Below are positions 1,447-15,469 of a stretch of 23,883 bases of DNA, piece after piece. Both the position numbers and the translations under genes were made by a program. The notes beneath the pieces are model-generated. The model was given only the letters and a program-made list of their open reading frames with translations. It had not been told where the DNA came from and did no database searches. How positions within the stretch are numbered: position 1 is the stretch's first letter; the number at the start of each line of letters is the position of its first letter. Origin of the DNA: a virus; IMG/VR virus record IMGVR_UViG_3300023192_000225, positions 1 through 23,883 of that record; one strand, 5' to 3'.

Positions 1447-2997
1447 ATGATCGATATCGAAGCGTTGGGGTTGAGTAAGGAAGAGAAGGTCCAGGTAGCG
1501 ATGTTAGCTGGGCATGAGAGGGCGAAACGGTCATTTGCGAGGTTCGTGCCTTATGTGAAGATATCGGTGAGTGGGGAGGGGATGGTTCCGCTGTTGGAGT
1601 GGGACCATATAAAGACATTGAACCGGGTGCTTATGGAGAGTAAGCGTCTGGTGTTGGCGAAGAGCCGTCAGTTAGGGATAACGACTGATCTGTCGGCTTT
1701 TGGTCTGTGGCATGCGATGTTCACGCCCCAGGCGTTGGTGCTTTATTTCAGTAAGGGGGAGCGGGACGCGTGGGAGTTCCTGGCGAAGAGTCGGAACACA
1801 TATAAGAATTTGCCGGAGGGGTTGCAGGAGCCTCTGGGGGAGGGTACGGAGTTCCCGAATAACCGGGAGCAGATGAGTTTCGCCAACGGGGGCCGGATAC
1901 TGACGCTGCCGAGTACCGAGACTGCGGGGCGGGGTCTGAACCCAACTTTGGTGGTGATGGATGAGGCTGATTTTCACGAATATCTCGACTCTGCGTACAA
2001 TTCTGTGAAGCCGGGGCTGGACGACAATGACGGGCATTTGATACTGACTAGTACCGTCAATCCGCATAAGGCGCGGAGCCTATTTCAAGACCTTTACAAG
2101 TTGGCGCCGCTGAACGGGTTCACAAAGTTGTATTTTGGGTGGAGGTCTAGACCGGAACGGGACGACACTTGGTACAAGAAGACCAAGGCTGAGTACATGG
2201 ACCAGGCGCTCTTCCAGAAGGAGCATTCTGAGACTGAGGCCGAGGCATTCGCGCCGGCCGCAGGGATCGCGGCCTTCAATCTGACCAGACTTACGGCGCT
2301 TCAGGGACAGACGAAGCCGCCGATATTGCAGATCCCTGTAGGGGTAACGACGGCGAACATCTATCAGGACTTCATCGCACTTCCAAACCAGAGGTACATG
2401 GCTGGGACCGACCCGTCCCACGGTGTTGGGGGTCATGGGGACGATGGGGTGACCGTCATCATGCATATGAACACCGGGGCGGTGGTCGCAGACATAAAGA
2501 CGAATACGGTGCCACCCGACCAGTTGGCAATAGCGTCGATGGAGTTATTGGAGAGGTATAAGAACCCCATCTGGGCTATCGAGGACAACGAGTGGGGGAT
2601 ACTGGCTATCAGGACGGCCCAGGCCATGCGGTATCGACACCTTTATCATCGGGACGACGGCAATAAGGTGGGTTGGCACACCGATGAGCGGTCAAGGAAC
2701 GTGCTGTGGGGGGACTTGAGAGAAGCAATCGAGACAGGACAACTCACCATCTTCAATGAGGACGGGTTGGCCCAGTTCTTCGAGGTCATATATAGGGAGA
2801 GAAGGGAAGGCAGGGTACGGATCGAGGCCCGGTCAGGGGGTCATGACGACTACCCGGTGGCCGTTGGCATCGCCTGGCAGATGCGGATGCACACCAGGAT
2901 AGCCCGGAGTTCCGGGGGAGCCTTATCCGCGGCGGGAGTGGGCGACAATGGTACTTGGGGTAGTATAATGCAGACTACATCTGGTAGGCGGTGGTAA
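1447..2997 (+). CDS. terL: Terminase large subunit (packaging ATPase-nuclease)
   Basis: 516 residues, a normal length for TerL. ATPase domain: Walker A variant AKSRQLGITT at residues 71-80, Walker B VVMDEAD at 169-175, coupling motif LTSTVNP near 200-206. Nuclease domain of RNase H fold: first acidic residue in AGTDPSHG (Asp322), a second acidic cluster in WAIEDNEWG (Glu379/Asp380) and a third in GGHDDYPVA (Asp467/Asp468). It translocates DNA into the prohead through the portal and cuts concatemers. ATG 1447 abuts the preceding TAG with GGGAGG at 1437-1442. The portal gene follows after one base. No small terminase is recognisable next to it. Confidence 0.95.
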   Translation: MIDIEALGLSKEEKVQVAMLAGHERAKRSFARFVPYVKISVSGEGMVPLLEWDHIKTLNRVLMESKRLVLAKSRQLGITTDLSAFGLWHAMFTPQALVLYFSKGERDAWEFLAKSRNTYKNLPEGLQEPLGEGTEFPNNREQMSFANGGRILTLPSTETAGRGLNPTLVVMDEADFHEYLDSAYNSVKPGLDDNDGHLILTSTVNPHKARSLFQDLYKLAPLNGFTKLYFGWRSRPERDDTWYKKTKAEYMDQALFQKEHSETEAEAFAPAAGIAAFNLTRLTALQGQTKPPILQIPVGVTTANIYQDFIALPNQRYMAGTDPSHGVGGHGDDGVTVIMHMNTGAVVADIKTNTVPPDQLAIASMELLERYKNPIWAIEDNEWGILAIRTAQAMRYRHLYHRDDGNKVGWHTDERSRNVLWGDLREAIETGQLTIFNEDGLAQFFEVIYRERREGRVRIEARSGGHDDYPVAVGIAWQMRMHTRIARSSGGALSAAGVGDNGTWGSIMQTTSGRRW

Positions 2998-2998
2998 T

Positions 2999-4819
2999 AT
3001 GCCCCAAGATATGAAACCGACGGCTAATTCTGTCACTACGGCGCGAAAACAACTGCAAGACCTATGGTCGAACTGCCACGGTAAGTGGGAACAGGTAGAC
3101 AGTTATTACAACCGGACGTTCCAGGTCTGGCCCGAGGGGTTGGACCGGCCCGGTTGGTATCGCCCCATGAGGGCAAGGAGCATAATCGACCATGCCGTGG
3201 ACCGGCAGTTGGCCCACGAACCGACCATTCACCGGGAGCCGGTAGGACAGGGCGAAGAACACCAGAAGAAGGCGGACAAGGTCGAACCAGCGCTCCGGGC
3301 TATCATGAGACATGTAGCCCTAGAGGAGATCTCGCTCCCCTGGAAGCAGGCAGCCAAGCACCTGATGCTCTACGGGTACGCGGTCATTGAAGACGGTCTT
3401 GACTCGGTGGTCATGAACAAACGGCGGGACAAACCCACCAAGAAACGTAGTGAGGCCGCCGAGGACTATGCCACCAGGGTGAGGTTGTGGGAGAACTTGA
3501 GACGCTCGATGGTGCCCTTCCGCACCCGGACGCCCCACCCGGCAAGGGTGCTGATGGACCCAACCAGGAAACGCCCGAACATGGCTATAAAGCACACTTA
3601 TCGTTTGGCCGGCGACCTATATGACCTAACTTATGCCCGTTCTCAGGGACGGAGGAAAGGCCGGGACGTAGAGGTGGAGGTCTTTGAGCGGGATAACCCC
3701 CAGGAGATGATACTAACCGATGAGTTCTGGTCCGAGAACTGGCACGGCATGTTTACCTCCACAGGTGACCAGCTCTTCGTGGAACCAAACACCTGGGGCT
3801 TCGTGCCCTTCTCCCACGCCTTCGCCGGTTACGGGAGCGAACCTACCCAGATGGAGAATATCGACCCCTCTTATATGGCGGTGGGGCTCTTAGACCACGC
3901 GATGGAAGACCTTTTGGCCCAGGCACAGGAGGCTGCGGCTAGACATAACGCGGTGATTGACGCCGCCTTCAACCCGATGGTCACCACCGGAGATGCGGCC
4001 GAACTCCAACAGCAACTCGCCCGAGGCGATATCCTTGAGGGACAACGGGGCGAGTACTTCAGACTGGAGATGCAACAGCTCCCACGCTGGATGTTCGAGT
4101 CCGAACAGTGGATAGACCGGGACCTGGATATGGGTACTTATAACCGTTCTGTGGCTGGTATACGGGAGCAGGGCGTTTCGACCGTGGGTCAACAAGCGAT
4201 ACTTTCAACTTCTGCTGACCGGAAATTCATCGCTCCGTCGGTACAACTCCAACACCTAGCAAGCGTGTCCACCGGGCATATACTCCAACTTATAGATGTA
4301 CTCGACCTAGACTTGAAGGTCGAAGGCCATGAGATACGACCCTCTGACTTAGAAGGTGAGTACTCGGTGAACGTGAAGTTCGAGTTGATCGACCCGGTAC
4401 TCCAGATGCAGAACCGGGAGATGGGGCTCCGTGAGGTCCAGCAGGGACTTAAATCGAAGCAGACCTACTGGAGCGCCGATGCCAAGTTGGAAGACGCTAC
4501 TGGCGAGGAGGCAAGGCTCCTTCGGGACATGATCCGCGCTCAGCCCGAAGTCATAAAGATACTCGCAGCGGCGGTAGCACGGGAAGACGGCATCTCTCAG
4601 ATGCTCCAAGATATGGAAGATGAGACTGCCGCAGCGGCCGCCGGCCAGGGGCCCCCGGTGGGTGGTGTGGGTGATCCCCGTGGTGGTGGGGACCCCCTGG
4701 CCGGCCTAGTAGCACCCCCGAGCCCCAACCAGGCTGGGGGCGGGGTACAGGAACTGAACAAGGCACTGACACCAAACGTGTTCAACCCTGACCGTAGAGG
4801 GACACAATTAGCGGGGTAA
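2999..4819 (+). CDS. Portal protein
   Basis: 606 residues. Supporting features are the position immediately after terminase and a typical portal N-terminal half, including RPMRARSIIDHAVDRQLAHE (residues 56-75), a helical KQAAKHLMLYGYAVIEDG stretch near 116-133 and TPHPARVLMDP. A long helical region near residues 300-430 fits the stem and wing. The last ~70 residues are low-complexity, rich in Gly, Pro and Ala, and probably disordered. The protein forms the dodecameric DNA entry ring at one capsid vertex, docks terminase and later the tail or neck. ATG 2999 lies one base after the terminase TAA (TAATATG), the same junction used to start the next gene at 4821. Confidence 0.88.
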   Translation: MPQDMKPTANSVTTARKQLQDLWSNCHGKWEQVDSYYNRTFQVWPEGLDRPGWYRPMRARSIIDHAVDRQLAHEPTIHREPVGQGEEHQKKADKVEPALRAIMRHVALEEISLPWKQAAKHLMLYGYAVIEDGLDSVVMNKRRDKPTKKRSEAAEDYATRVRLWENLRRSMVPFRTRTPHPARVLMDPTRKRPNMAIKHTYRLAGDLYDLTYARSQGRRKGRDVEVEVFERDNPQEMILTDEFWSENWHGMFTSTGDQLFVEPNTWGFVPFSHAFAGYGSEPTQMENIDPSYMAVGLLDHAMEDLLAQAQEAAARHNAVIDAAFNPMVTTGDAAELQQQLARGDILEGQRGEYFRLEMQQLPRWMFESEQWIDRDLDMGTYNRSVAGIREQGVSTVGQQAILSTSADRKFIAPSVQLQHLASVSTGHILQLIDVLDLDLKVEGHEIRPSDLEGEYSVNVKFELIDPVLQMQNREMGLREVQQGLKSKQTYWSADAKLEDATGEEARLLRDMIRAQPEVIKILAAAVAREDGISQMLQDMEDETAAAAAGQGPPVGGVGDPRGGGDPLAGLVAPPSPNQAGGGVQELNKALTPNVFNPDRRGTQLAG

Positions 4820-5109: not shown

Positions 5110-7461
5110 ATGGCACAGGATAATGACCTGAGACTACGGTATGGTACCTGGGAGCAATATCTTAATGGTCGATGGAACGAAGCTTCTGATGCTACTCAGC
5201 GGTGGCTATCGGACCGATATGTCGGGGTGAGGGGTACGGGCAACGCCCAGAGTTTTGAAAATATCGGATACCCAGAAACCACCACCAAGCGATATACGTC
5301 TAGAGATGAATTTAGGACTAGTCTGATCGCAGCTAAAGAGAAAGGGGATCTCACTGGTCCGCGTGACAAGTCACAAAAAAAGAGTTTTAGAGAGCGTTTC
5401 TTAGAAGCCTGGGCTGACTGGTCTGATCAACCTTGGCCGCCATACATAGAGGGTCAAGCTGAGTTTGGGCTTGACGGAAGAGTCGTCGGCCCCTTCATGG
5501 AGTATTTTGAAGCGCTTGACGCAGACAATAGAGAGCCGCAGAGTTTTACGCTAGATAACGACGAGGTCTACACCATCCTGCCGGGTGGCAAGGTCATCAA
5601 AGAAGGGACGAAAGACCCTGAGACTGGCGAACTGATCAAAACACCAGGCTCTTCCGAAGTCTTTGTCGCGGAGGATGGTCGTAGTTATATAAGGCAGCCA
5701 GACGGTACAACGGAGCTGGTGCCAGGCGAAGGGAAGCTCGAATGGAACCAAAGACTGGGGCGTTACATAATCCGGCAACCGGACGGCACCCTCCAGTTCG
5801 GACCCGATCCAACCCAAGATGCCAAGATAAAGACCGACTCCTCTGGGCGTCAGTACATAACCCAGCCTGACGGCACCATCCAGTATCTAGACCGAGAGTT
5901 CGAGCCTGGAGTTATCCAGAAGGAAGGTTACGACCTACTTCAGCAGCCCAGTGGTGCGCTCTCCCAGTTGGCGCCGTTACCAGAAGAAGCTGGCGTGGAA
6001 ACCATCGGCGGGATACAGTTCATCAAGACGACTTCCGGCGAACTCGTACCGCTCGATAACGTGCTGAAGAAGATGAAAGCGAACATGGTCGTCACGGGGG
6101 ACTACACGGGTGCGGCCGCGGTACATGCCTGGGAAACCCGTCCTTCCAACCAGGAATACTTCGACAGGATGCTCCAGTATGTGAACGCGCCGGCCGACCA
6201 GTTGCTGGTATCTGCCATCGCCCGTGGTCAGGGACTGGTATCACCGCCACCCGAAGAGACAATCCAGCGCATCGGTCCACCACCCGAATACCTGACCGAA
6301 GCCTTCAATATGCTCCGCGATCAGATGCGGATGGGCCTACCAAAAGGCACCGAGTCCTTCGCCGAGACGATGGCTAATCATGCCGCAGAACTTCAGAACG
6401 AGTCCCTAGCACTGGACAATGACGCTAAACGGCAAAATATCGAGGACACTGCCCAAGCGGCTTCGGATACTCATGAAGCTGCGGTTGTCGCTCTCCAGGG
6501 ATCTTCGGATACCGTGGACTTCAGTGCCGCTAATAGTGAGATGGACCTGAATCTACGCCTCAATCCTCCTGATGACGACGATACCCCGGTTGACCCAACG
6601 CCGGTTACAGAAGAGCAAGTTATCAGCCCTCCTCCACAAGCATATGTATCAGAAGAGGCCGAGGAGCAAGTTATCAGCCTCGCTCCACAAACATATGTAT
6701 CTGAAGAAGCAGGGGAGCAAGTTGACCCTCTTACCTTTGAAGAAGCCGTTCAATCTCTGCAAGCAGAAGGCTCGGCTGGGACAGTATTTGCTCAGCCAGA
6801 GACAGAGCCTCTTACACCACAACAATATGTTTCTGAAGAAACTATCACCCCCGAACCAGAACCGATGATGACAACCCAAGAAGCCCTGGCAAGTTTCGGT
6901 GTCTCTGGCTCACAGCTTGGTAGCTATGCTGGAGTTAATGAACCAAGTCCTGCTATGTCAACTGACGTTTGGGATACATCCAATGAAGATGACTTGTTTG
7001 CCGGAGGCGGAATCTACGATGACAACACGGCCATCGTCGGTGAATCAGGGCCGGAACTAGCTATCTTCCCTCGTGGCACCGAGATAGTGCCATTAGATAG
7101 AAGGATGAGCCCCGTTCAGGCCAGCCGGTTACGCCGCCGTGGTGTCCGGGGGATGGCAGAGGGCGGCATCGTGTTCGACAACCCGTTAGATAATCCGCTG
7201 CCGTTGGGTATCCGCCAGTTGCAGGCTGGACGCTCGTTGGGCGCTCCCAGAGGTCAACTACTCCGCACGGCTGGTATCGCGCTCCCGTCTGCTCAGGCCC
7301 GGAGAAGGATGCTCCCTAGTGAGAGGGAAGCTTTCGCAGGTCTTGGCCGCATGGCCGGCATACCCGTAGCCGAGTTCCAGCAGGAACTCGGTATCACTAC
7401 CCCATCCGGTGCGCCGAGGACTGGCAGTGCAAGGATGCTGCCTCTCTCATTGAGAAGATAG
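5110..7461 (+). CDS. Large repeat-containing virion protein (internal or tail-associated)
   Basis: 783 residues. The N-terminus is charged and helical. At 191-283 there are three clear RxYIxQPDGT units (starting near 191, 218 and 247) and a degenerate fourth near 274, about 27-29 residues apart, likely small beta repeats. Residues 390-465 are helical. Residues 502-535 carry two 17-residue EQVIS...YVSEEA repeats in an acidic, Pro-rich disordered region, with a YVSEE echo at 573. Near the end GGGIYDDNTAIVGESGPEL and FPRGTEIVPL (632-662) match a motif common in the C-termini of phage tape-measure and other virion proteins. The C-terminal 120 residues are basic. ATG 5110 follows AGAGG with 7 nt spacing. 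It most likely is an internal or ejected protein; it is short and helix-poor for a tape measure. Confidence 0.75.
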   Translation: MAQDNDLRLRYGTWEQYLNGRWNEASDATQRWLSDRYVGVRGTGNAQSFENIGYPETTTKRYTSRDEFRTSLIAAKEKGDLTGPRDKSQKKSFRERFLEAWADWSDQPWPPYIEGQAEFGLDGRVVGPFMEYFEALDADNREPQSFTLDNDEVYTILPGGKVIKEGTKDPETGELIKTPGSSEVFVAEDGRSYIRQPDGTTELVPGEGKLEWNQRLGRYIIRQPDGTLQFGPDPTQDAKIKTDSSGRQYITQPDGTIQYLDREFEPGVIQKEGYDLLQQPSGALSQLAPLPEEAGVETIGGIQFIKTTSGELVPLDNVLKKMKANMVVTGDYTGAAAVHAWETRPSNQEYFDRMLQYVNAPADQLLVSAIARGQGLVSPPPEETIQRIGPPPEYLTEAFNMLRDQMRMGLPKGTESFAETMANHAAELQNESLALDNDAKRQNIEDTAQAASDTHEAAVVALQGSSDTVDFSAANSEMDLNLRLNPPDDDDTPVDPTPVTEEQVISPPPQAYVSEEAEEQVISLAPQTYVSEEAGEQVDPLTFEEAVQSLQAEGSAGTVFAQPETEPLTPQQYVSEETITPEPEPMMTTQEALASFGVSGSQLGSYAGVNEPSPAMSTDVWDTSNEDDLFAGGGIYDDNTAIVGESGPELAIFPRGTEIVPLDRRMSPVQASRLRRRGVRGMAEGGIVFDNPLDNPLPLGIRQLQAGRSLGAPRGQLLRTAGIALPSAQARRRMLPSEREAFAGLGRMAGIPVAEFQQELGITTPSGAPRTGSARMLPLSLRR
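6613..6720 (+). repeat. 51-bp in-frame tandem repeat
   Basis: GAGCAAGTTATCAGCC begins at 6613 and again at 6664, and GAGCAAGTT recurs at 6715, giving an exact 51-bp (17-codon) period with two full copies and the start of a third. It lies in the acidic, Pro-rich linker of the 783-residue protein. A weaker copy of the YVSEE part appears near 6820. The unit likely expands and contracts by slippage or unequal recombination. Confidence 0.85.
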
Positions 7462-10400
7462 ATGCCTTTCTACATGGACATAGCCGAGCCTGCCCGGAAT
7501 AGAGCAACCAAGAAACTCCGGGCCCTGACTGCCGCGGAAGCAGACCCGTTTGGTGCGACACTTCCGCGTCAATTGACCGCGGCGGAAGCAGACCCATTCG
7601 GTACGACGGCACAACTTCCGTTGGCACCACCTCCTGACCTATCTACTATGGCCGGACGTATGGAGGCTTCACGTGCCTATCCGGCACAGCCCGAAGAGGG
7701 TAGTATCGCCGCTAGATTAGGACTAGAACGAAGGGATGCGTTGCCTCTGGCCCAGGAAGACCTCTTCTCCAAGACAGGACAGGCTGTTGCTGCTCTCGGC
7801 GAGAAGATAGGAAGAATCGAAGTAGGACAAGCTCAATTAGCAGGCATTGGTGCTTCTGCTAGTCCTGAAATGTATCTTCCAGGTGTCGATACGCAGAGAG
7901 AGCAAACACAAGAAGCTATAGAGTCCACAACAATGGCCAAGATGGCCCGTGGTGAACTTAGCGCCAGTGAAGGATGGGCGCAGTTAGGAGTAGATCTATC
8001 TAAATTGACTTGGTGGCAGCAAATCCTGATGGGGTTTGGTCCCACAGCCGCTATTCCTCTACCTATTCCAATAAAAGGGATGGGTGGTGTCCGTCAATTC
8101 AATAAATATACAAGTGACGTAACCGACTTATTGTCATCTGCCGTGTGGCGGGACGCTCCCCCTTCCGTCAAAGCTAAGATAAAGACCGGGATACAAGAAC
8201 AGGTAGGCGAGAGGATAGCCGAACAGGTAAGGCAGGCTGCTCCTGACCTAGCCCCCAACCGGGTAGCTGAGGTTGTCGATACCTTGATCGATGACTTTAT
8301 GAAGCCGGGGATGAAACCGGAAGAGTTCCAGCAACACGCAGACCTAGTGATAGACCGGGTCCAGGGATATGACCGTCTGCCTACCGCTAGACCCACTGTC
8401 CGACCTGACGCTGCACCAGTGCCTGCCCTGGAACCGGCACTACCCGTGGCGGCGGCTGTTCCTGAAGCAGCGGTAGTTGTTCCTAGAGCCGACGCAGTAC
8501 TGCCCCCTGCTCCTACCAGACCGGCGTTGCAACCAGGACAAGCCCCAGCAGCCGCTCCGTCCCCAGCCGCTCCATCCCCAGCAGCCGCTCCAGCTCCCGT
8601 AGCGGCGGCTCCTGAAGCAGCGGCCGCAGCTCGTAGTTATGTACAAGACCCTCCCACTTCAGCGGCGACTGAAGGAGTAACTCCTTGGGTAGTCGATAGT
8701 GCTCAAAGACAATTCCCCAAGCATCCTCCTGGTCCTTCTGTTGAAGCCGATGTATTTCATGGCACTACCCGACCAGCCGGTGCGTTAGAGGGCTTGCCAG
8801 CGATTGACGAAGCTAGTGAATTTGCTTTTGGTGGGATGCACTTTGGAACTGAACAAGCTGCTAAAGAAAGATTAGCGCTGCCGTCATTTGACCAACGAGG
8901 ACGACCAGATGCGCTACCTCAGAGGATAGTCCCAGTAAAAATACGGCTGGAGAAACCCTATGGTTCCATTGACAACCCTGTGGACGAAAATCAGCTTTGG
9001 AACCTAATCAATATCAGAGTTATTTTACCGGAGGATTTAGCGGCTGGTATCCCTTCTGCTCAAGCAAGAAGGCATCCATCTGGGATTGAGCAGTTAAGAG
9101 CAGAAGGCTTTGATGGTGTCGTATATAGGAACATCAACGAAGACCCTAACTCTATATCTTACCTCGTATTTGACCCTCAGAAATCTGTCGTTCCAGCAGC
9201 CGCTCCATCCCCAGCAAAAGAACAGGTTCGAGTCTTGGTTCCTGATGACCCATCGCAGTATGGACAACGTATATATGCCGGGGGTATAACGCAACCAAGC
9301 GGCGAGATAGTTCGCGGTACGCCTATCTCCCTTGATGACCCGGTAATTCCAGATACTGTCTACCACATGACCACTAATGCTCCTGCGGTTCGGGTATCTG
9401 GCATATTACGAGCATCTGGAGAAGGTGGACTCGGGGGCGCGAAACGCGATCAGATTGTATCTTTTACCATCAATCCCGACATTGCTTATCAATTAGTCGA
9501 TGATATGAAACTCTCCTCTGAGATTGCCCGTATGGGTAGAGGTGAGTGGAAGTCACCAGAACGCATAGCATCGTCACGCGAGATACTCGCACGATTGACC
9601 GAGAATATGCAAAGTGAGGGATGGACATCCAGCGGGTTCAGTCGCTTTGTTGATGACCCAGAAGTATCCTTTCTTTACGGTAACTATACTCCTACTGAGT
9701 GGCTGAACCAATATTTCAGCTATCGAGAATCTGCAACCACAAAGTTAGGTGCGAAGAAACGAAACCCGTTATTGTTTACCGATGTTGAGACTTTAGCAAG
9801 AGTAAACCCCGATAATATAGCCGTTATTGAGGTGCCCAAATCGTCACTACGTACTGGGGCGATGGTCACTGATTTAGATTTAACGAACCCCTACGGATTG
9901 CAAGAGATCCGCATCTACGGTGATGTGCCGGTTTCCCCTGAAACAGTTCCGCCCCCAGCAGCGGAAGTGCCTGGGCCACCAGCCGCTCTAGGTCAGCCAC
10001 CGATGACTGCGTTGCCCCCGGCCGGGCCGCCGCCGCCCGTAGCTCCTACTGCTGCGGCTGCTGCGCCACCACCGCCGCCCAGAGGGCCGGAAGTCTTTGA
10101 GACAGGGTTGGACCCTGAACAGCCGCCAACTCCGTTCATGCCGGCTAAAGTCCAAGACAACCTTGATTTAGCCAAGCTTCAGATTGACCTAACCACGGGC
10201 AAGAAGAGGCAGATTAGGATAGGCGCCCTATCTCCCATCCAGAAGTGGCAGAATGTCCAGTTGACCATCCGTCCTACAGGTCAGACCCTGAACAAAATAC
10301 CTGGGATCAGCCGGTTCCAGTCGGAATTCTTCCCGAAGTACCGCATGACCCCCAAGTTACATAGGGCGTGGGTGGCATACGGTATCACGGATTCGGAACT

Positions 10401-13400
10401 CCGGGGACAGATGTACTTATCTCGGGCAGGGCTGTTCGTAGAACTTAAATCTGCATTCGGTGAGGATGCACTGAAAGGATGGCAGCCCCCTATCCCCGCT
10501 ACAGGCAGTTTCCAACATCTGGCGCAGTTATATACCCCTGAGGAGGGTCCGGTATACCTTGTCCCGTTTATTGGACCAGAATCTGCAAGAGAGTCTTTCT
10601 CCGGTACGTTGTTCGATATTGCTACACGCCCAAGCATGTATCAGTTAGATGACGCACAGAGGGCCGCATTAGAAACCTGGCGTTCTCACCAAGATGACTT
10701 CATGGACATCATCATCGCGGGGTACGGCGTCAATGTTGAGAAGTATGCGATCCCAGAGGGCGGGGTATTCCTTTCCAATATCGATGTTGGCGAGGACTCG
10801 ATTGCTGCTTCAACGACTGTTTATCAGAAAGTTACACTAGGTAGCAGGAAACGCCGGATATTTGATACGGCCGTAGACCGGTTACATGAGAATCCAGATT
10901 TCATACCTGAGACAAACATCGAAGTCTTGCAGACTGGGATGGACAACGCGAAAGCTCACTGGGCCGCACAGGAAACATTCAAACTCGGCAATGGTGGTAT
11001 CTCCAAGATAGAACTCATGGAGATGGGGCACCCGGAACTGGTAGCCGCTAGAGAAGCTACTATCCGTCAGGTGAACAGCCTGAAAGGGCGCATAAATACA
11101 GCAGAAAGACAGGTAGGTGCGACTCAGAGTGAACTAAACCTACTTGCGACCCGGATAAAGAACTTAGATAGCAGGATTGATAGATTAGATAAGATCATAG
11201 TAGACCTTGACGCAGAATACGGCCCGATGCTGTCTCACCTTTCAGGCGAACTGTACTCGCTCAAAACGGTGCTTAGTGAAACTCAAGGACGGGGCGAGAT
11301 ACTGGTAGAGCGCGGTATTGGCCTAGTTGAAAAAGATAAAGACCTGATAGCGCAACTTGACGTTGCGACCAACAAATTAGATGACCTACGAGATGGATAT
11401 ACCGCCGCAGCACCCACCATCCGTGTCTATGGTAAGAGGATTAATTATGAACTAGTCAAAGAGGGGGGTCTGTTCCAGTACTTCCCAGAGACAGATATCA
11501 ATGGTGTCAAGGTCGCTAAAGCCGCCAACGAACTGGTCAAGGCTGGAAATAATCCGTTTGTGAGATTCGCCAATAACGTTCAGCAGACCGTACTCGCTGC
11601 CGACTTGTCACCGCTGATGGCGATCCAGGGGCATCTGGCGGTTATAGCCAACCCGAAACAGGTCATCTACAAACTGGTGGGCGCTGGCAAGGGCAGTATC
11701 CAGTCCAGAGATACCCTTCATATCTTCCGTGAAGACACGATGCTTAAAGTGATCGAAGAGAACTGGGAGGATGCCCAAGACCTATCAAGGTATATAGGTA
11801 TGCCGTTCATCGGTAACACACCGGAAGAGTTTGCCGGCGGTTTCTTGAAGTACCTAAAAGGCACCATTGGCGGCAAGGAATACAGCTATACCAAACTTAA
11901 CGATGCAATGTTTGCTCTTGTATTACGGAACATGCTGACGGGATATCAGACCAATATGAAGATGCTGGCTACTGGTGGGATAACAGGAGAAGAGGCAAAG
12001 ATAGCCTCGGCATTGGTGGTCACTGACTATCTGCCCCTGGTCAACTGGCGGTTGGCCGGCCTATCTACTGCCCAATATAACGCCAGACGGGCTGCGGTGA
12101 CTTCCGCGTCTTTCATCGTCAAGACTGCGGAACTGATTACCTCGATAACCACTGCTCTTGTGAAACTAGGGACGAAACAGACGTTATCAGCCCAAGAACG
12201 GCTGTCACTCCGCATCGGCATGAATATGTACGCGGTGGTTACTACAGTGGCTTTGACCACGGCTGTCATAGATGCATTGATCAACGATGAAGACCCCGTG
12301 CAGGCAGGGTTGAATGCCGTAAATCCAACCCATCCTGACTGGTGGACGGTGTCGTTAGCTTTTACCCATGTACCGGAAATCGAAAACCAGAGGGTTCCCC
12401 TCGGCGGTCCGTTCCGGTCTATGGCTAAGATGATTGCCCCACGAAATGTCAGTTGGTCACCTATCCAGGTTCCATTTGCCAGACTACCCCAGTGGTCCTC
12501 GAACCGCGTTGGTCCTCTGTGGCAGACCGTTAGAAGCCTTGGAACGGACCGAGACTTTTACGGTTATAAGATCTACAAGGGCGGTGGGGCAGAAAGGTTC
12601 ATCCGTGGAGTTTTATTCGCTCTTGAAGGTGTGCTACCTCTTGGACCGGGAACGCTTGCTGGAGGACTAAGACGGGGTTCCAGTCTCCTTGAGAGTCTCC
12701 CTGATGCTACCTGGCAGTTCTTCGGCGCGAACCCACGGGAAGACAGCGCATGGCAGCAACGGAATAAGAGTGCGGCCTGGTGGGCTGAGTCTGAGAACCT
12801 AAACTATGACGTAGGTGGGTATAAAGACCTCCGGGGCTGGGACCGGAAACGCTACGATGATACCGTTCTGGGCGCACTCGATGCCGAAGCCGTGTATCAG
12901 AAAGTAAAGAAGGACGCTGAAGTAGGCCAGATATCTTGGGCTATGGACCTATTGGACTCTATGAACGCACAGCGGGAGGCTGAAGAAGCCCAAACGCGTG
13001 ACGACCAGAGATTGGACAATTTCTTTGATCCTACTATTGTCAGCACTGATCCCCGTGTGTCGCTCAATCCGAAAGACTGGAAACAGCAACGAAAAGAAAG
13101 AGCATTAAAACTACGGGCTACGAAGAAAACCATCTTCTACGAGCCTGAAGAGAAGAAGTGGCTGCCCACATTCGAGTTCGATGAGGAAGAGCCTACCGAT
13201 AGGTTCTTCGAGAAGATGGCCTCGATAATGAACGATGCCAACCTAGACCGGATGGATGAGAAAGCCTGGGAAGACCTGGACCAGTGGGTATCAGAGCAGT
13301 CACAGGAAGACCAGGAATACATCGAGATGGACGCCTATGGCGGGGCGCTGACGGACAAGGTACAGGAATACTACGATGACCTTGAGAAGCTAGAAGAGTA

Positions 13401-13857
13401 CTTCGAGATCGAGGAAGAGTACATCGCTACAAAGTCGCCAAGGATACAGAATCTATGGGAACAATATCGGCATACAAACAATCAGTCGCGAAATGAAAGT
13501 TTCTTATGGCGGCCGCTGGAAACAACGATAGAAGGACTGGCATTAAGTCTTAAATCTTATCGTCGGGGGAACTTCACGGTAGACCGTTTATTAGCCAAAT
13601 GGGACTACAGTGGCAGAGCAGCTCATCCAGACAATAGGCGGGAATTTAGAAGGATACCGACAAGGCCGGACTTCTATACATCAGAGGAGGGGGCTTCTCA
13701 GGGATTGCCCACTCAGAGAGAGCCTGCTCAGAGAGAACCTACTCCATCCAACGATTTATTTGAAGGTTTATTTGGTGAGTCTAGAGACACTGCACCAAGC
13801 CCTCAATCACCTCAAACCGAAGACTTATTTGAGGGCTTATTTGCCGGTGCTAGATAG
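7462..13857 (+). CDS. Giant polyvalent-type virion protein with two ART-like domains
   Basis: 2131 residues in one uninterrupted frame. Order: duplicated LTAAEADPFG peptide (22-49); helical region to ~305; Pro/Ala linker (310-395); ADP-ribosyltransferase-like domain 1 (about 425-577: VFHGTT, GGMHFGTEQAAKERL, GFDGVVYRN, YLVFDPQKSV); ART-like domain 2 (about 630-825: VYHMTTNAP, GGLGG, VSFTINPDIAYQL, LQEIRIYGDVPV); Pro/Ala linker (826-895); large conserved region; coiled coil (1193-1312); GLSTAQYNARRAAVTSASF block with hydrophobic helices (1547-1606), resembling LPD38-type regions of polyvalent proteins; acidic region (1890-1990); DLFEGLF twice (2098, 2121). Polyvalent proteins are typically packaged and delivered into the host, where such enzyme domains may counter defences. 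ATG 7462 abuts the preceding TAG. Catalysis is unproven. Confidence 0.75.
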   Translation: MPFYMDIAEPARNRATKKLRALTAAEADPFGATLPRQLTAAEADPFGTTAQLPLAPPPDLSTMAGRMEASRAYPAQPEEGSIAARLGLERRDALPLAQEDLFSKTGQAVAALGEKIGRIEVGQAQLAGIGASASPEMYLPGVDTQREQTQEAIESTTMAKMARGELSASEGWAQLGVDLSKLTWWQQILMGFGPTAAIPLPIPIKGMGGVRQFNKYTSDVTDLLSSAVWRDAPPSVKAKIKTGIQEQVGERIAEQVRQAAPDLAPNRVAEVVDTLIDDFMKPGMKPEEFQQHADLVIDRVQGYDRLPTARPTVRPDAAPVPALEPALPVAAAVPEAAVVVPRADAVLPPAPTRPALQPGQAPAAAPSPAAPSPAAAPAPVAAAPEAAAAARSYVQDPPTSAATEGVTPWVVDSAQRQFPKHPPGPSVEADVFHGTTRPAGALEGLPAIDEASEFAFGGMHFGTEQAAKERLALPSFDQRGRPDALPQRIVPVKIRLEKPYGSIDNPVDENQLWNLINIRVILPEDLAAGIPSAQARRHPSGIEQLRAEGFDGVVYRNINEDPNSISYLVFDPQKSVVPAAAPSPAKEQVRVLVPDDPSQYGQRIYAGGITQPSGEIVRGTPISLDDPVIPDTVYHMTTNAPAVRVSGILRASGEGGLGGAKRDQIVSFTINPDIAYQLVDDMKLSSEIARMGRGEWKSPERIASSREILARLTENMQSEGWTSSGFSRFVDDPEVSFLYGNYTPTEWLNQYFSYRESATTKLGAKKRNPLLFTDVETLARVNPDNIAVIEVPKSSLRTGAMVTDLDLTNPYGLQEIRIYGDVPVSPETVPPPAAEVPGPPAALGQPPMTALPPAGPPPPVAPTAAAAAPPPPPRGPEVFETGLDPEQPPTPFMPAKVQDNLDLAKLQIDLTTGKKRQIRIGALSPIQKWQNVQLTIRPTGQTLNKIPGISRFQSEFFPKYRMTPKLHRAWVAYGITDSELRGQMYLSRAGLFVELKSAFGEDALKGWQPPIPATGSFQHLAQLYTPEEGPVYLVPFIGPESARESFSGTLFDIATRPSMYQLDDAQRAALETWRSHQDDFMDIIIAGYGVNVEKYAIPEGGVFLSNIDVGEDSIAASTTVYQKVTLGSRKRRIFDTAVDRLHENPDFIPETNIEVLQTGMDNAKAHWAAQETFKLGNGGISKIELMEMGHPELVAAREATIRQVNSLKGRINTAERQVGATQSELNLLATRIKNLDSRIDRLDKIIVDLDAEYGPMLSHLSGELYSLKTVLSETQGRGEILVERGIGLVEKDKDLIAQLDVATNKLDDLRDGYTAAAPTIRVYGKRINYELVKEGGLFQYFPETDINGVKVAKAANELVKAGNNPFVRFANNVQQTVLAADLSPLMAIQGHLAVIANPKQVIYKLVGAGKGSIQSRDTLHIFREDTMLKVIEENWEDAQDLSRYIGMPFIGNTPEEFAGGFLKYLKGTIGGKEYSYTKLNDAMFALVLRNMLTGYQTNMKMLATGGITGEEAKIASALVVTDYLPLVNWRLAGLSTAQYNARRAAVTSASFIVKTAELITSITTALVKLGTKQTLSAQERLSLRIGMNMYAVVTTVALTTAVIDALINDEDPVQAGLNAVNPTHPDWWTVSLAFTHVPEIENQRVPLGGPFRSMAKMIAPRNVSWSPIQVPFARLPQWSSNRVGPLWQTVRSLGTDRDFYGYKIYKGGGAERFIRGVLFALEGVLPLGPGTLAGGLRRGSSLLESLPDATWQFFGANPREDSAWQQRNKSAAWWAESENLNYDVGGYKDLRGWDRKRYDDTVLGALDAEAVYQKVKKDAEVGQISWAMDLLDSMNAQREAEEAQTRDDQRLDNFFDPTIVSTDPRVSLNPKDWKQQRKERALKLRATKKTIFYEPEEKKWLPTFEFDEEEPTDRFFEKMASIMNDANLDRMDEKAWEDLDQWVSEQSQEDQEYIEMDAYGGALTDKVQEYYDDLEKLEEYFEIEEEYIATKSPRIQNLWEQYRHTNNQSRNESFLWRPLETTIEGLALSLKSYRRGNFTVDRLLAKWDYSGRAAHPDNRREFRRIPTRPDFYTSEEGASQGLPTQREPAQREPTPSNDLFEGLFGESRDTAPSPQSPQTEDLFEGLFAGAR
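7525..7608 (+). repeat. 48-bp period in-frame duplication at the N-terminus
   Basis: Residues 22-33 and 38-49 of the giant protein both read LTAAEADPFG followed by a small residue and Thr. At DNA level the units start at 7525 and 7573, a 48-bp period, and differ mainly at third positions. Synonymous divergence with protein conservation suggests selection on the peptide. Confidence 0.7.
13753..13842 (+). repeat. Repeated DLFEGLF C-terminal motif
   Basis: The codons for DLFEGLF occur at 13753-13773 and 13822-13842, in the last 35 residues of the giant protein. Each is followed by a small residue (Gly or Ala), and the two are separated by a disordered, Ser/Pro-rich spacer. The DNA copies differ at synonymous positions. 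It resembles a short docking peptide rather than a folded domain. Confidence 0.7.
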
Positions 13858-14584: not shown

Positions 14585-15469
14585 ATGGCAGCAGGCGATA
14601 CGACTACCCAGTCACTGGCTGACAGTCTGCCTACAGTTATTGCGTCCGCTCGTCAGGTCCGCGAACAAGAGGGTGTTGTCCCTAACCTAGTGGACAAAGT
14701 CACTCTTGGCGAAGGGACTGGCGTCTCATGGAACGAAGTGTCTATGGCGCAATTGACTGCTCAGACGATCACCGAGACAACTCGTCTCGACAACCCACAG
14801 CAGATGTCCGATACGTTGCTGACGATCACTCCCACGGTGGTAGGTATCCATACCCTCATCACTGACCGAGTGGCAGCGCGTATCAGCAAGACTGCCTACG
14901 CAAGGGTAGGCGCTCTGGCACAGAATGCTATCCAGAGGAAGAAGGACGAAGACGGGCTGACCGCCATTGATGGTGCGTCCCTGACTATCGGTTCTTCTGG
15001 TTCGGCTCTGACAACGGGGCATATTGCTGCCGCTGTCTCCCGTATTTCCTCTGACTCTGACGAGCCTGGTAACCCGCCTTACCGTGCGGTCCTACATGGC
15101 TTCCAGATCAAAGACCTGTATGATGCGATTTCATCAATCTCTAGTGGGAATCCTCCCACGCAGGGTCTGACCGATGGTCTGTCCGCTCGGGTCTTCCAAG
15201 AAGGTTTCCATGGCCGCATCCACAACTGCGAGATCTATGAAGATGGAAACATCGACGCTTCCAGCAACAGCGCTAAGGGCGGTATCTTCGCGCAGGAAGC
15301 ACTGATTCTTGTCCAAGGACGTTCCCCGCGCACGGAGACTCGCAGAGAGCCTCATATCGGCGGCGGTTCCACCAGCGTATTCCTTTACGACGAGTACGCC
15401 TACGGTGAGCGCTCTGCCGGGAACTGGCTCTTTGAAGTTGAAACCGACGCGACACTCCCAACCACCTAA
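14585..15469 (+). CDS. Major capsid protein, HK97 fold
   Basis: 294 residues. ATG 14585 follows AAGGAG at 14571-14576. Recognised by position after scaffold and by phage capsid family patterns: an N-arm (QVREQEGVVPNLVDKV), E-loop-like GTGVSWNEVSMAQLTAQTIT, a spine helix DRVAARISKTAYARVGALAQNAIQRK written here only in part as ARVGALAQNAIQRKKDEDG (near 115-135), P-domain PPYRAVLHGFQIKDLYDAIS, and a C-terminal VFLYDEYAYGERSAGNW. It forms the icosahedral shell. The length is short but within the range for this family. I see no fused protease or decoration domain. The stop TAA overlaps the next ATG. Confidence 0.88.
   Translation: MAAGDTTTQSLADSLPTVIASARQVREQEGVVPNLVDKVTLGEGTGVSWNEVSMAQLTAQTITETTRLDNPQQMSDTLLTITPTVVGIHTLITDRVAARISKTAYARVGALAQNAIQRKKDEDGLTAIDGASLTIGSSGSALTTGHIAAAVSRISSDSDEPGNPPYRAVLHGFQIKDLYDAISSISSGNPPTQGLTDGLSARVFQEGFHGRIHNCEIYEDGNIDASSNSAKGGIFAQEALILVQGRSPRTETRREPHIGGGSTSVFLYDEYAYGERSAGNWLFEVETDATLPTT

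What the first reader, a model, noticed from the sequence alone, without database searches (positions are those of the whole stretch)
8746..9933. Two different ADP-ribosyltransferase-like domains in one virion-type protein
Residues 425-577 and 630-825 of the giant protein each carry ART-like signatures (VFHGTT with GFDGVVYRN; VYHMTTNAP with GGLGG and VSFT) and are unlike each other. Placed in a protein of polyvalent architecture next to the capsid genes, they suggest an ejected dual effector that could modify host targets at infection, for example defence or transcription proteins.
Basis: partly seen in the sequence, partly recalled or inferred. Interest (0 to 1): 0.68.

Follow-up and report, generated by a model that had tools for sequence, protein, structure and literature searches.

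The report
Phage virion protein carrying swappable effectors
A very large protein encoded among the head genes of an uncultivated phage carries one clear ADP-ribosyltransferase domain plus a second, undescribed enzyme-like domain shared by many unrelated phages, both in a region that is swapped between relatives; this fits a known kind of protein thought to be injected into bacteria, with a second domain that is new.

Summary
Domain 1 (res 420-581) is an ADP-ribosyltransferase: 8 of 9 aligned relatives hit Pfam ART-PolyVal (best 5.5e-16), and its AlphaFold model retrieves mostly ART folds (NatT, diphtheria toxin, tankyrase, KptA, ParT). It is a sub-family with invariant His433, H460-F-G-T and Glu560. 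Domain 2 (res 611-828) is not in Pfam. I found 18 distinct relatives (35-65% identical), all in large phage-type proteins, with invariant His635, Ser667-x-Thr669 and Glu815. Its motif order looks ART-like, but fold search found no ART match and profile tests were inconclusive, so 'second ART' is plausible, not shown. New observations: the effector region is a cassette. Orthologues sharing 65-72% of the C-terminal core carry other domains there (ParB-like plus YHKT domain in L003), bounded by homologous Pro/Ala linkers with identical linker DNA; a syntenic phage (L103) keeps domain 2 but not the core. Best reading: a head-packaged, ejected polyvalent effector, a known kind, containing an undescribed domain family. 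Target, NAD chemistry and virion location are untested.

The parts
7462..13857 (+). 2131-aa giant polyvalent-type protein, ATG to stop
   Evidence: ORF; identical in L001 and, over its first 1172 aa, in L002; flanked by head genes
8503..8640 (+). Pro/Ala-rich linker before domain 1, containing linker DNA shared with L003
   Evidence: blastn to L003: window 8503-8570 at 87% identity and 22-bp exact match at 8564-8585; direct-repeat family
8719..9204 (+). Domain 1 (res 420-581): ADP-ribosyltransferase, H-F-G-T sub-family of ART-PolyVal
   Evidence: profile match res 420-581; Pfam ART-PolyVal E 0.022 for the window sequence, 8 of 9 aligned members match, best 5.5e-16; AF2 pLDDT 77, pTM 0.73; Foldseek top hits are ART folds
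8758..8760 (+). codon of His433 (strand-1 His, VFHGTT)
   Evidence: invariant in 9 of 9
8839..8841 (+). codon of His460 (HFGT; strand-2 position occupied by other residues in canonical copies)
   Evidence: invariant in 9 of 9; alignment with canonical copies
9139..9141 (+). codon of Glu560 (putative catalytic acid, NxxED)
   Evidence: invariant in 9 of 9
9195..9216 (+). 22-bp linker DNA between domains 1 and 2, identical in L003 (531-552) between its ParB-like and YHKT modules
9292..9945 (+). Domain 2 (res 611-828): undescribed phage-associated domain family, ART-like by motif order only
   Evidence: profile match res 611-828; relatives in 18 distinct contexts; no Pfam
9364..9366 (+). codon of His635 (YHMTT)
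   Evidence: 19 of 19
9460..9468 (+). codons of Ser667-Phe668-Thr669 (VSFT)
   Evidence: Ser and Thr 19 of 19
9904..9906 (+). codon of Glu815 (LQEIRIYGD), candidate catalytic acid
   Evidence: 19 of 19
9973..13806 (+). conserved C-terminal core (from about res 838-881 to 2115), with a coiled-coil-like segment at about 1196-1311
   Evidence: 65-72% identity to L003 and L004, which lack domains 1 and 2; SMC-like weak hits to the coiled coil
1447..2997 (+). terminase large subunit
   Evidence: PHROG terminase, best E 4.2e-20
2999..4819 (+). portal-position protein
   Evidence: no informative PHROG hit; syntenic homologue in L103 32%, E 1e-75; portal by position only
14585..15469 (+). major-capsid-position protein
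   Evidence: 52% to L103, 92-94% to L003/L004; capsid by position only (no named hit)

Best explanation
The ORF encodes a polyvalent virion protein made late with the head proteins, packaged in the head and ejected into the host with the DNA. A conserved C-terminal core carries a variable central payload region. In this phage the payload is (1) an ADP-ribosyltransferase of the ART-PolyVal family that would use NAD+ to modify a host macromolecule early in infection (His433/His460-Phe461 binding NAD, Glu560/Asp561 catalysing), and (2) a second, undescribed domain, most likely also an NAD-dependent ART-like transferase (His635, Ser667/Thr669, Glu815). Pro/Ala linkers with near-identical DNA let payload modules be exchanged between phages. 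Shown here: domain-1 family and fold, domain-2 family and its invariant residues, head-locus position, payload exchange. Inferred: packaging, ejection, catalysis, host target, and the ART nature of domain 2.
For: Domain 1: ART-PolyVal in 8/9 members; Foldseek list dominated by ART folds, NatT probability 0.95; invariant His/HFGT/Glu. Domain 2: 19 sequences with about 20 invariant positions; a structural relative (E 3.7e-14) lies in a 'Phage head morphogenesis domain containing protein'. Head context of domain 2 in phages other than this one: L014 between portal/MuF and head protease/MCP; L099 upstream of a major head protein; L098 downstream of a portal; L103 in the same slot between portal-like and scaffold/MCP homologues; L087 in one polypeptide with Amidase_2 and M23. 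Payload exchange: L003 and L004 keep the core at 65-72% but not domains 1 and 2, L103 keeps domain 2 (49%) but not the core; shared linker DNA. Published precedent: ARTs are the commonest protein-modifying domains in polyvalent proteins, in one or several copies, and about 44% of phage ARTs lie in contexts suggesting head packaging (PMC5512222, PMC9503650).
Against: Domain 2 shows no ART fold by Foldseek in PDB, no Pfam ART family, and profile-profile tests were no better than decoys. Domain 1's Foldseek E-values are individually weak (best 0.025), and its strand-2 Tyr is replaced by His. No virion proteomics; no membrane-segment signal above composition shuffles; no significant similarity of the core to LPD38 polyvalent proteins.
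Confidence: 0.58

Rival explanations
1. Domain 2 is not an ART but a different, uncharacterised enzyme or binding domain; only domain 1 is an ART, so the protein is a single-ART polyvalent effector with an unknown partner.
For: AF2 model (pLDDT 73, pTM 0.74) gives no ART among the 50 best of 190 PDB matches, none with E below 0.4; no Pfam or PDB sequence match; helix-rich model.
Against: Motif order (strand-1 YHxTT, strand-2 VSxT followed by a helix with conserved Ala, late E on a strand) is that of ARTs; model built from only 10 sequences; hhalign also fails on DarT versus Tpt1, a pair of true ART relatives, so that negative has no power.
Confidence: 0.35
2. The domains act in the producing cell late in infection (for example protecting packaging from defence or excluding superinfection), or have a structural role, rather than being injected.
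For: Head-gene position equally means late expression; PMC9503650 raises this alternative itself.
Against: Domain 2 shares single polypeptides with lytic domains typical of virion entry machinery (L087) and has a structural relative in a head-morphogenesis protein; packaged ART precedents exist (T4 Alt, cited).
Confidence: 0.2
3. The payload is a polymorphic toxin used against competing bacteria, as in MuF toxins of temperate phages.
For: HYD2-clade ARTs are shared with polymorphic toxin systems (PMC9503650); module exchange resembles polymorphic toxins.
Against: Payload is central, not C-terminal; no immunity-like gene was noted next to it among the window ORFs, though this was not searched for specifically; multiple unrelated payload enzymes in relatives.
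Confidence: 0.08
4. The domains are degenerate remnants without activity.
For: Domain 1 of the window scores below the Pfam cut-off by itself (E 0.022) and lacks the strand-2 Tyr; strong payload turnover.
Against: Intact 2131-aa frame; all invariant residues retained in both domains, except domain 2's near-invariant Asp660, which is Ala here.
Confidence: 0.1

Closest known systems
ART-PolyVal (Pfam PF18760) / Tox-ART-HYD2 clade in polyvalent proteins (Iyer et al. 2017, PMC5512222)
   Same: domain 1: family match through relatives, strand-1 His, late acidic residue, giant phage protein
   Different: strand-2 Tyr position is His460 (HFGT) throughout this sub-family; invariant Glu560 next to Asp561, where HYD2 is defined by Asp
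Phage T4 Alt (packaged R-S-E ART)
   Same: works-like model: head-packaged ART injected with DNA
   Different: different ART clade, dedicated protein, no exchangeable payload slot; not a family member
Planktothrix phage Pag-Yong1 'large polyvalent protein' UMO75972.1
   Same: contains a domain-1 relative (35% over 115 aa) in a 2772-aa protein
   Different: carries LPD38 at its C-terminus, no domain 2; core not detectably related
MuF-fused phage effectors (PMC5576092, PMC9503650)
   Same: domain 2 has a structural relative in a head-morphogenesis protein and sits beside MuF in L014
   Different: the window protein has no recognised MuF domain

Membership tests
ART-PolyVal PF18760 / Tox-ART-HYD2 (domain 1) | sequence match to the family model | tested here: met
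   window sequence below cut-off (16.0 vs 31.2 bits), but 8 of 9 aligned homologues match, best 5.5e-16
ART-PolyVal PF18760 / Tox-ART-HYD2 (domain 1) | ART fold | tested here: met
   Foldseek: NatT, diphtheria toxin, tankyrases, KptA, RES, ParT fill the shown list; individual E-values 0.025 and above
ART-PolyVal PF18760 / Tox-ART-HYD2 (domain 1) | His in strand 1 | tested here: met
   His433, 9/9
ART-PolyVal PF18760 / Tox-ART-HYD2 (domain 1) | Tyr in strand 2 | tested here: not met
   HFGT: His460/Phe461 in all 9; canonical copies show F or S at this place too, so this is a variant of the clade, not textbook H-Y-D
ART-PolyVal PF18760 / Tox-ART-HYD2 (domain 1) | Asp in strand 5 | tested here: inconclusive
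   invariant Glu560 followed by Asp561 in most members; which is catalytic cannot be told
ADP-ribosyltransferase superfamily (domain 2) | ART fold | tested here: inconclusive
   moderate-confidence model, no ART match in PDB
ADP-ribosyltransferase superfamily (domain 2) | match to a known ART family | tested here: not met
   Pfam on 18 members, PDB profile search; hhalign vs DarT, Tpt1, domain 1 no better than decoys
ADP-ribosyltransferase superfamily (domain 2) | invariant catalytic-type residues in ART order | tested here: met
   His635, Ser667, Thr669, Glu815 in 19/19; resemblance of the order to ARTs is from general knowledge
ADP-ribosyltransferase superfamily (domains 1 and 2) | NAD+ binding and turnover | not testable with these tools
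   needs biochemistry
Polyvalent proteins | several effector-type domains in one very large phage/plasmid protein | tested here: met
   two unrelated domains plus core; relatives with ParB-like, GNAT, kinase-like, peptidase domains
Polyvalent proteins | recognised LPD-type accessory domain | tested here: not met
   no LPD hit in the giant; core versus LPD38-bearing proteins not significant
Polyvalent proteins | packaged in the virion and transferred to the host | not testable with these tools
   context only

The most novel reading that the evidence does not exclude
Domain 2 founds an undescribed phage-associated effector family (either a new ART clade with an H / S-x-T / E site, or a new enzyme fold) that moves as a cassette between unrelated phages' head-packaged giant proteins, in a payload slot whose contents are swapped by recombination in repeated linkers.
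Probability: 0.4. Interest if true: 0.6.

Novelty: new variant of a known kind. Interest (0 to 1): 0.45.

Why it matters
Polyvalent proteins with ARTs are known, but mostly from computation. This locus adds a defined, testable pair: one assignable ART and one widespread, conserved domain without a name, in a slot where natural phages have swapped payloads while keeping the delivery core. Comparing phages that differ only in payload would show what early, injected effectors do, and domain 2's family could be a further set of candidate anti-defence or host-takeover enzymes.

Tried and rejected
Direct Pfam/PHROG/NCBIfam scans of the whole giant: only coiled-coil noise. tblastn of the whole giant in phage records: none. 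Xanthomonas phage XapPhi helicase hits to domain 2: E about 1, rejected as chance. Core as an LPD38 domain: rejected as unproven. Membrane conduit in the core: one hydrophobic stretch, not above shuffles. hhalign of domain 2 to DarT and Tpt1: aligned His motif to His motif in DarT but at decoy level; the test also fails for DarT versus Tpt1, so uninformative. Domain 2 in 291 genomes of one phylum: only the MAG contig already known; plasmids: none. 'Two ARTs are a standard pair': rejected, no other locus found carries both.

Full report
WHAT IS THERE. The window is an uncultivated viral record of 23,883 bases. The finding lies inside a 2131-aa ORF, 7462-13857. Upstream are a GNAT-like protein, a terminase large subunit (PHROG E 4.2e-20), a portal-position protein and a 783-aa protein; downstream are scaffold- and capsid-position proteins. 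Portal, scaffold and capsid are named by position and by homology to the same genes in L003, L004 and L103/L104; they have no informative named hit.

DOMAIN 1 IS AN ART. The window sequence alone hits Pfam ART-PolyVal weakly (E 0.022). Relatives were found in Pag-Yong1 and in eight IMG/VR contigs. Of the nine aligned members, eight match ART-PolyVal, best 5.5e-16. Fourteen columns are invariant: His433, His460-Phe-Gly-Thr, Ala466, Ala467, Arg470, Asp504, Gly549, Asp551, Tyr555, Asn557, Glu560. The AlphaFold model (pLDDT 77, pTM 0.73) retrieves from PDB a list dominated by ARTs: NatT (probability 0.95), diphtheria toxin, tankyrases, KptA, RES and ParT. Single E-values are weak (0.025 at best); the consistency of the list is the evidence. 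Aligned with canonical ART-PolyVal copies, His460 falls where Iyer et al. describe the strand-2 Tyr of the HYD2 clade, and the acid falls at Glu560/Asp561. It is therefore a variant sub-family, H-[H/F]-[E/D].

DOMAIN 2 IS A REAL, CONSERVED FAMILY, BUT NOT A PROVEN ART. Single-sequence and profile scans gave 18 distinct relatives, 35-65% identical. Across 19 sequences His635, Gly658-Gly659, Asp663, Ser667, Thr669, Ala675, Arg755, Gly799-Ala800, Asp806, Glu815, Arg817, Tyr819-Gly-Asp821 are invariant. In the window Asp660, present in the other 18, is Ala. No Pfam family and no PDB sequence matches. The AlphaFold model (10 sequences, pLDDT 73, pTM 0.74) had no significant PDB match and no ART among the 50 listed. 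Its one significant match in the viral library is a 'Phage head morphogenesis domain containing protein', E 3.7e-14. Profile-profile tests against DarT and Tpt1 were at decoy level, but so was DarT against Tpt1. The motif order and strand pattern resemble ARTs from general knowledge; I put ART membership at about 0.6.

THE REGION IS A PAYLOAD CASSETTE. L003 and L004 share the C-terminal core from about residue 838/881 at 65-72% identity and near-identical capsid genes (92-94%), but lack domains 1 and 2 in what is seen of them. L003 carries a ParB-like domain (Pfam ParB_N, E 2.6e-6) and a YHKT-type domain of unknown family in the same place. L004's contig starts just inside this region, so its cassette is only partly seen. 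The Pro/Ala linkers bounding the payload are homologous, and a 22-bp linker stretch is identical between the window (8564-8585, 9195-9216) and L003. Conversely L103/L104, from a more distant phage of the same gene order (portal-like 32%, scaffold 34%, capsid 52%), has a giant protein in the same slot in which the only detected similarity to the window giant is domain 2 (49%). This is good evidence for module exchange; the recombination mechanism itself is inference.

CONTEXT OF DOMAIN 2 ELSEWHERE. L014: portal, MuF/head morphogenesis, domain-2 polyprotein, head protease, major head protein. L099: followed by a major head protein. L098: after a portal. L087: one polypeptide with Amidase_2 and M23. 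L086: N-terminus resembles a lytic domain by eye (not tested). L009/L012/L030: with kinase-like or DUF192 domains. L098: with GNAT. The only genome-collection hit is on a small MAG contig with the same phage-like tags. No plasmid hit.

INTERPRETATION. ART-bearing polyvalent proteins next to head genes are already described: they can hold several ARTs (up to 12 copies), and about 44% of phage ARTs lie in contexts suggesting head packaging (PMC5512222, PMC9503650). The finding is therefore a new variant of a known kind. What appears new is the domain-2 family and the direct view of payload swapping on a constant core. Injection, NAD chemistry and target are inferred. The proposal that defence or transcription proteins are the target has no specific evidence here.

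Noticed in passing
L014 5943-9302 and neighbouring ORFs; L032, L034, L040, L098: Polyproteins carrying domain 2 contain short repeated tags (DQARDEGGRFTSTGGG; GPGSGHxGHxGRPGxxGGS; ARDExGxWTxGG) before or between effector-type domains, and the same tags occur in neighbouring ORFs including the head-protease ORF of L014. They may be packaging or cleavage signals.
   Followed up: partly
L009, L011, L012, L030: Another repeated linker (GEKLEYLSPGEK..TxRGAxGYYPSE) separates ART-like, ParB-like, kinase-like and DUF192 modules in phages of T4-like gene content (UvsX-like recombinase, ribonucleotide reductase and Thy1 with inteins).
   Followed up: partly
L003 about 560-930: A YHKT-type domain of unknown family occupies the payload slot of the orthologous giant; it may be another ART-like domain.
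   Followed up: no
L009, L011: A segment 'FYVFRGG...PTSL...EEELIIL' looks like an R-S-E type ART in the same polyprotein as domain 2 (by eye only).
   Followed up: no
window 5110-7461: The 783-aa protein ends with a 'GGGIYDDNTAIVGESGPELAIFPRGTEIVPL' motif that, from memory, recalls tape-measure or internal virion proteins; no family hit.
   Followed up: no
L087 456-16487: Open reading frame of at least 5344 aa combining M23 peptidase, Amidase_2 and domain 2.
   Followed up: no
L022 5023-6138: Two tandem ART-PolyVal-type copies, one canonical and one of the HFGT sub-family, in one 2166-aa protein.
   Followed up: partly
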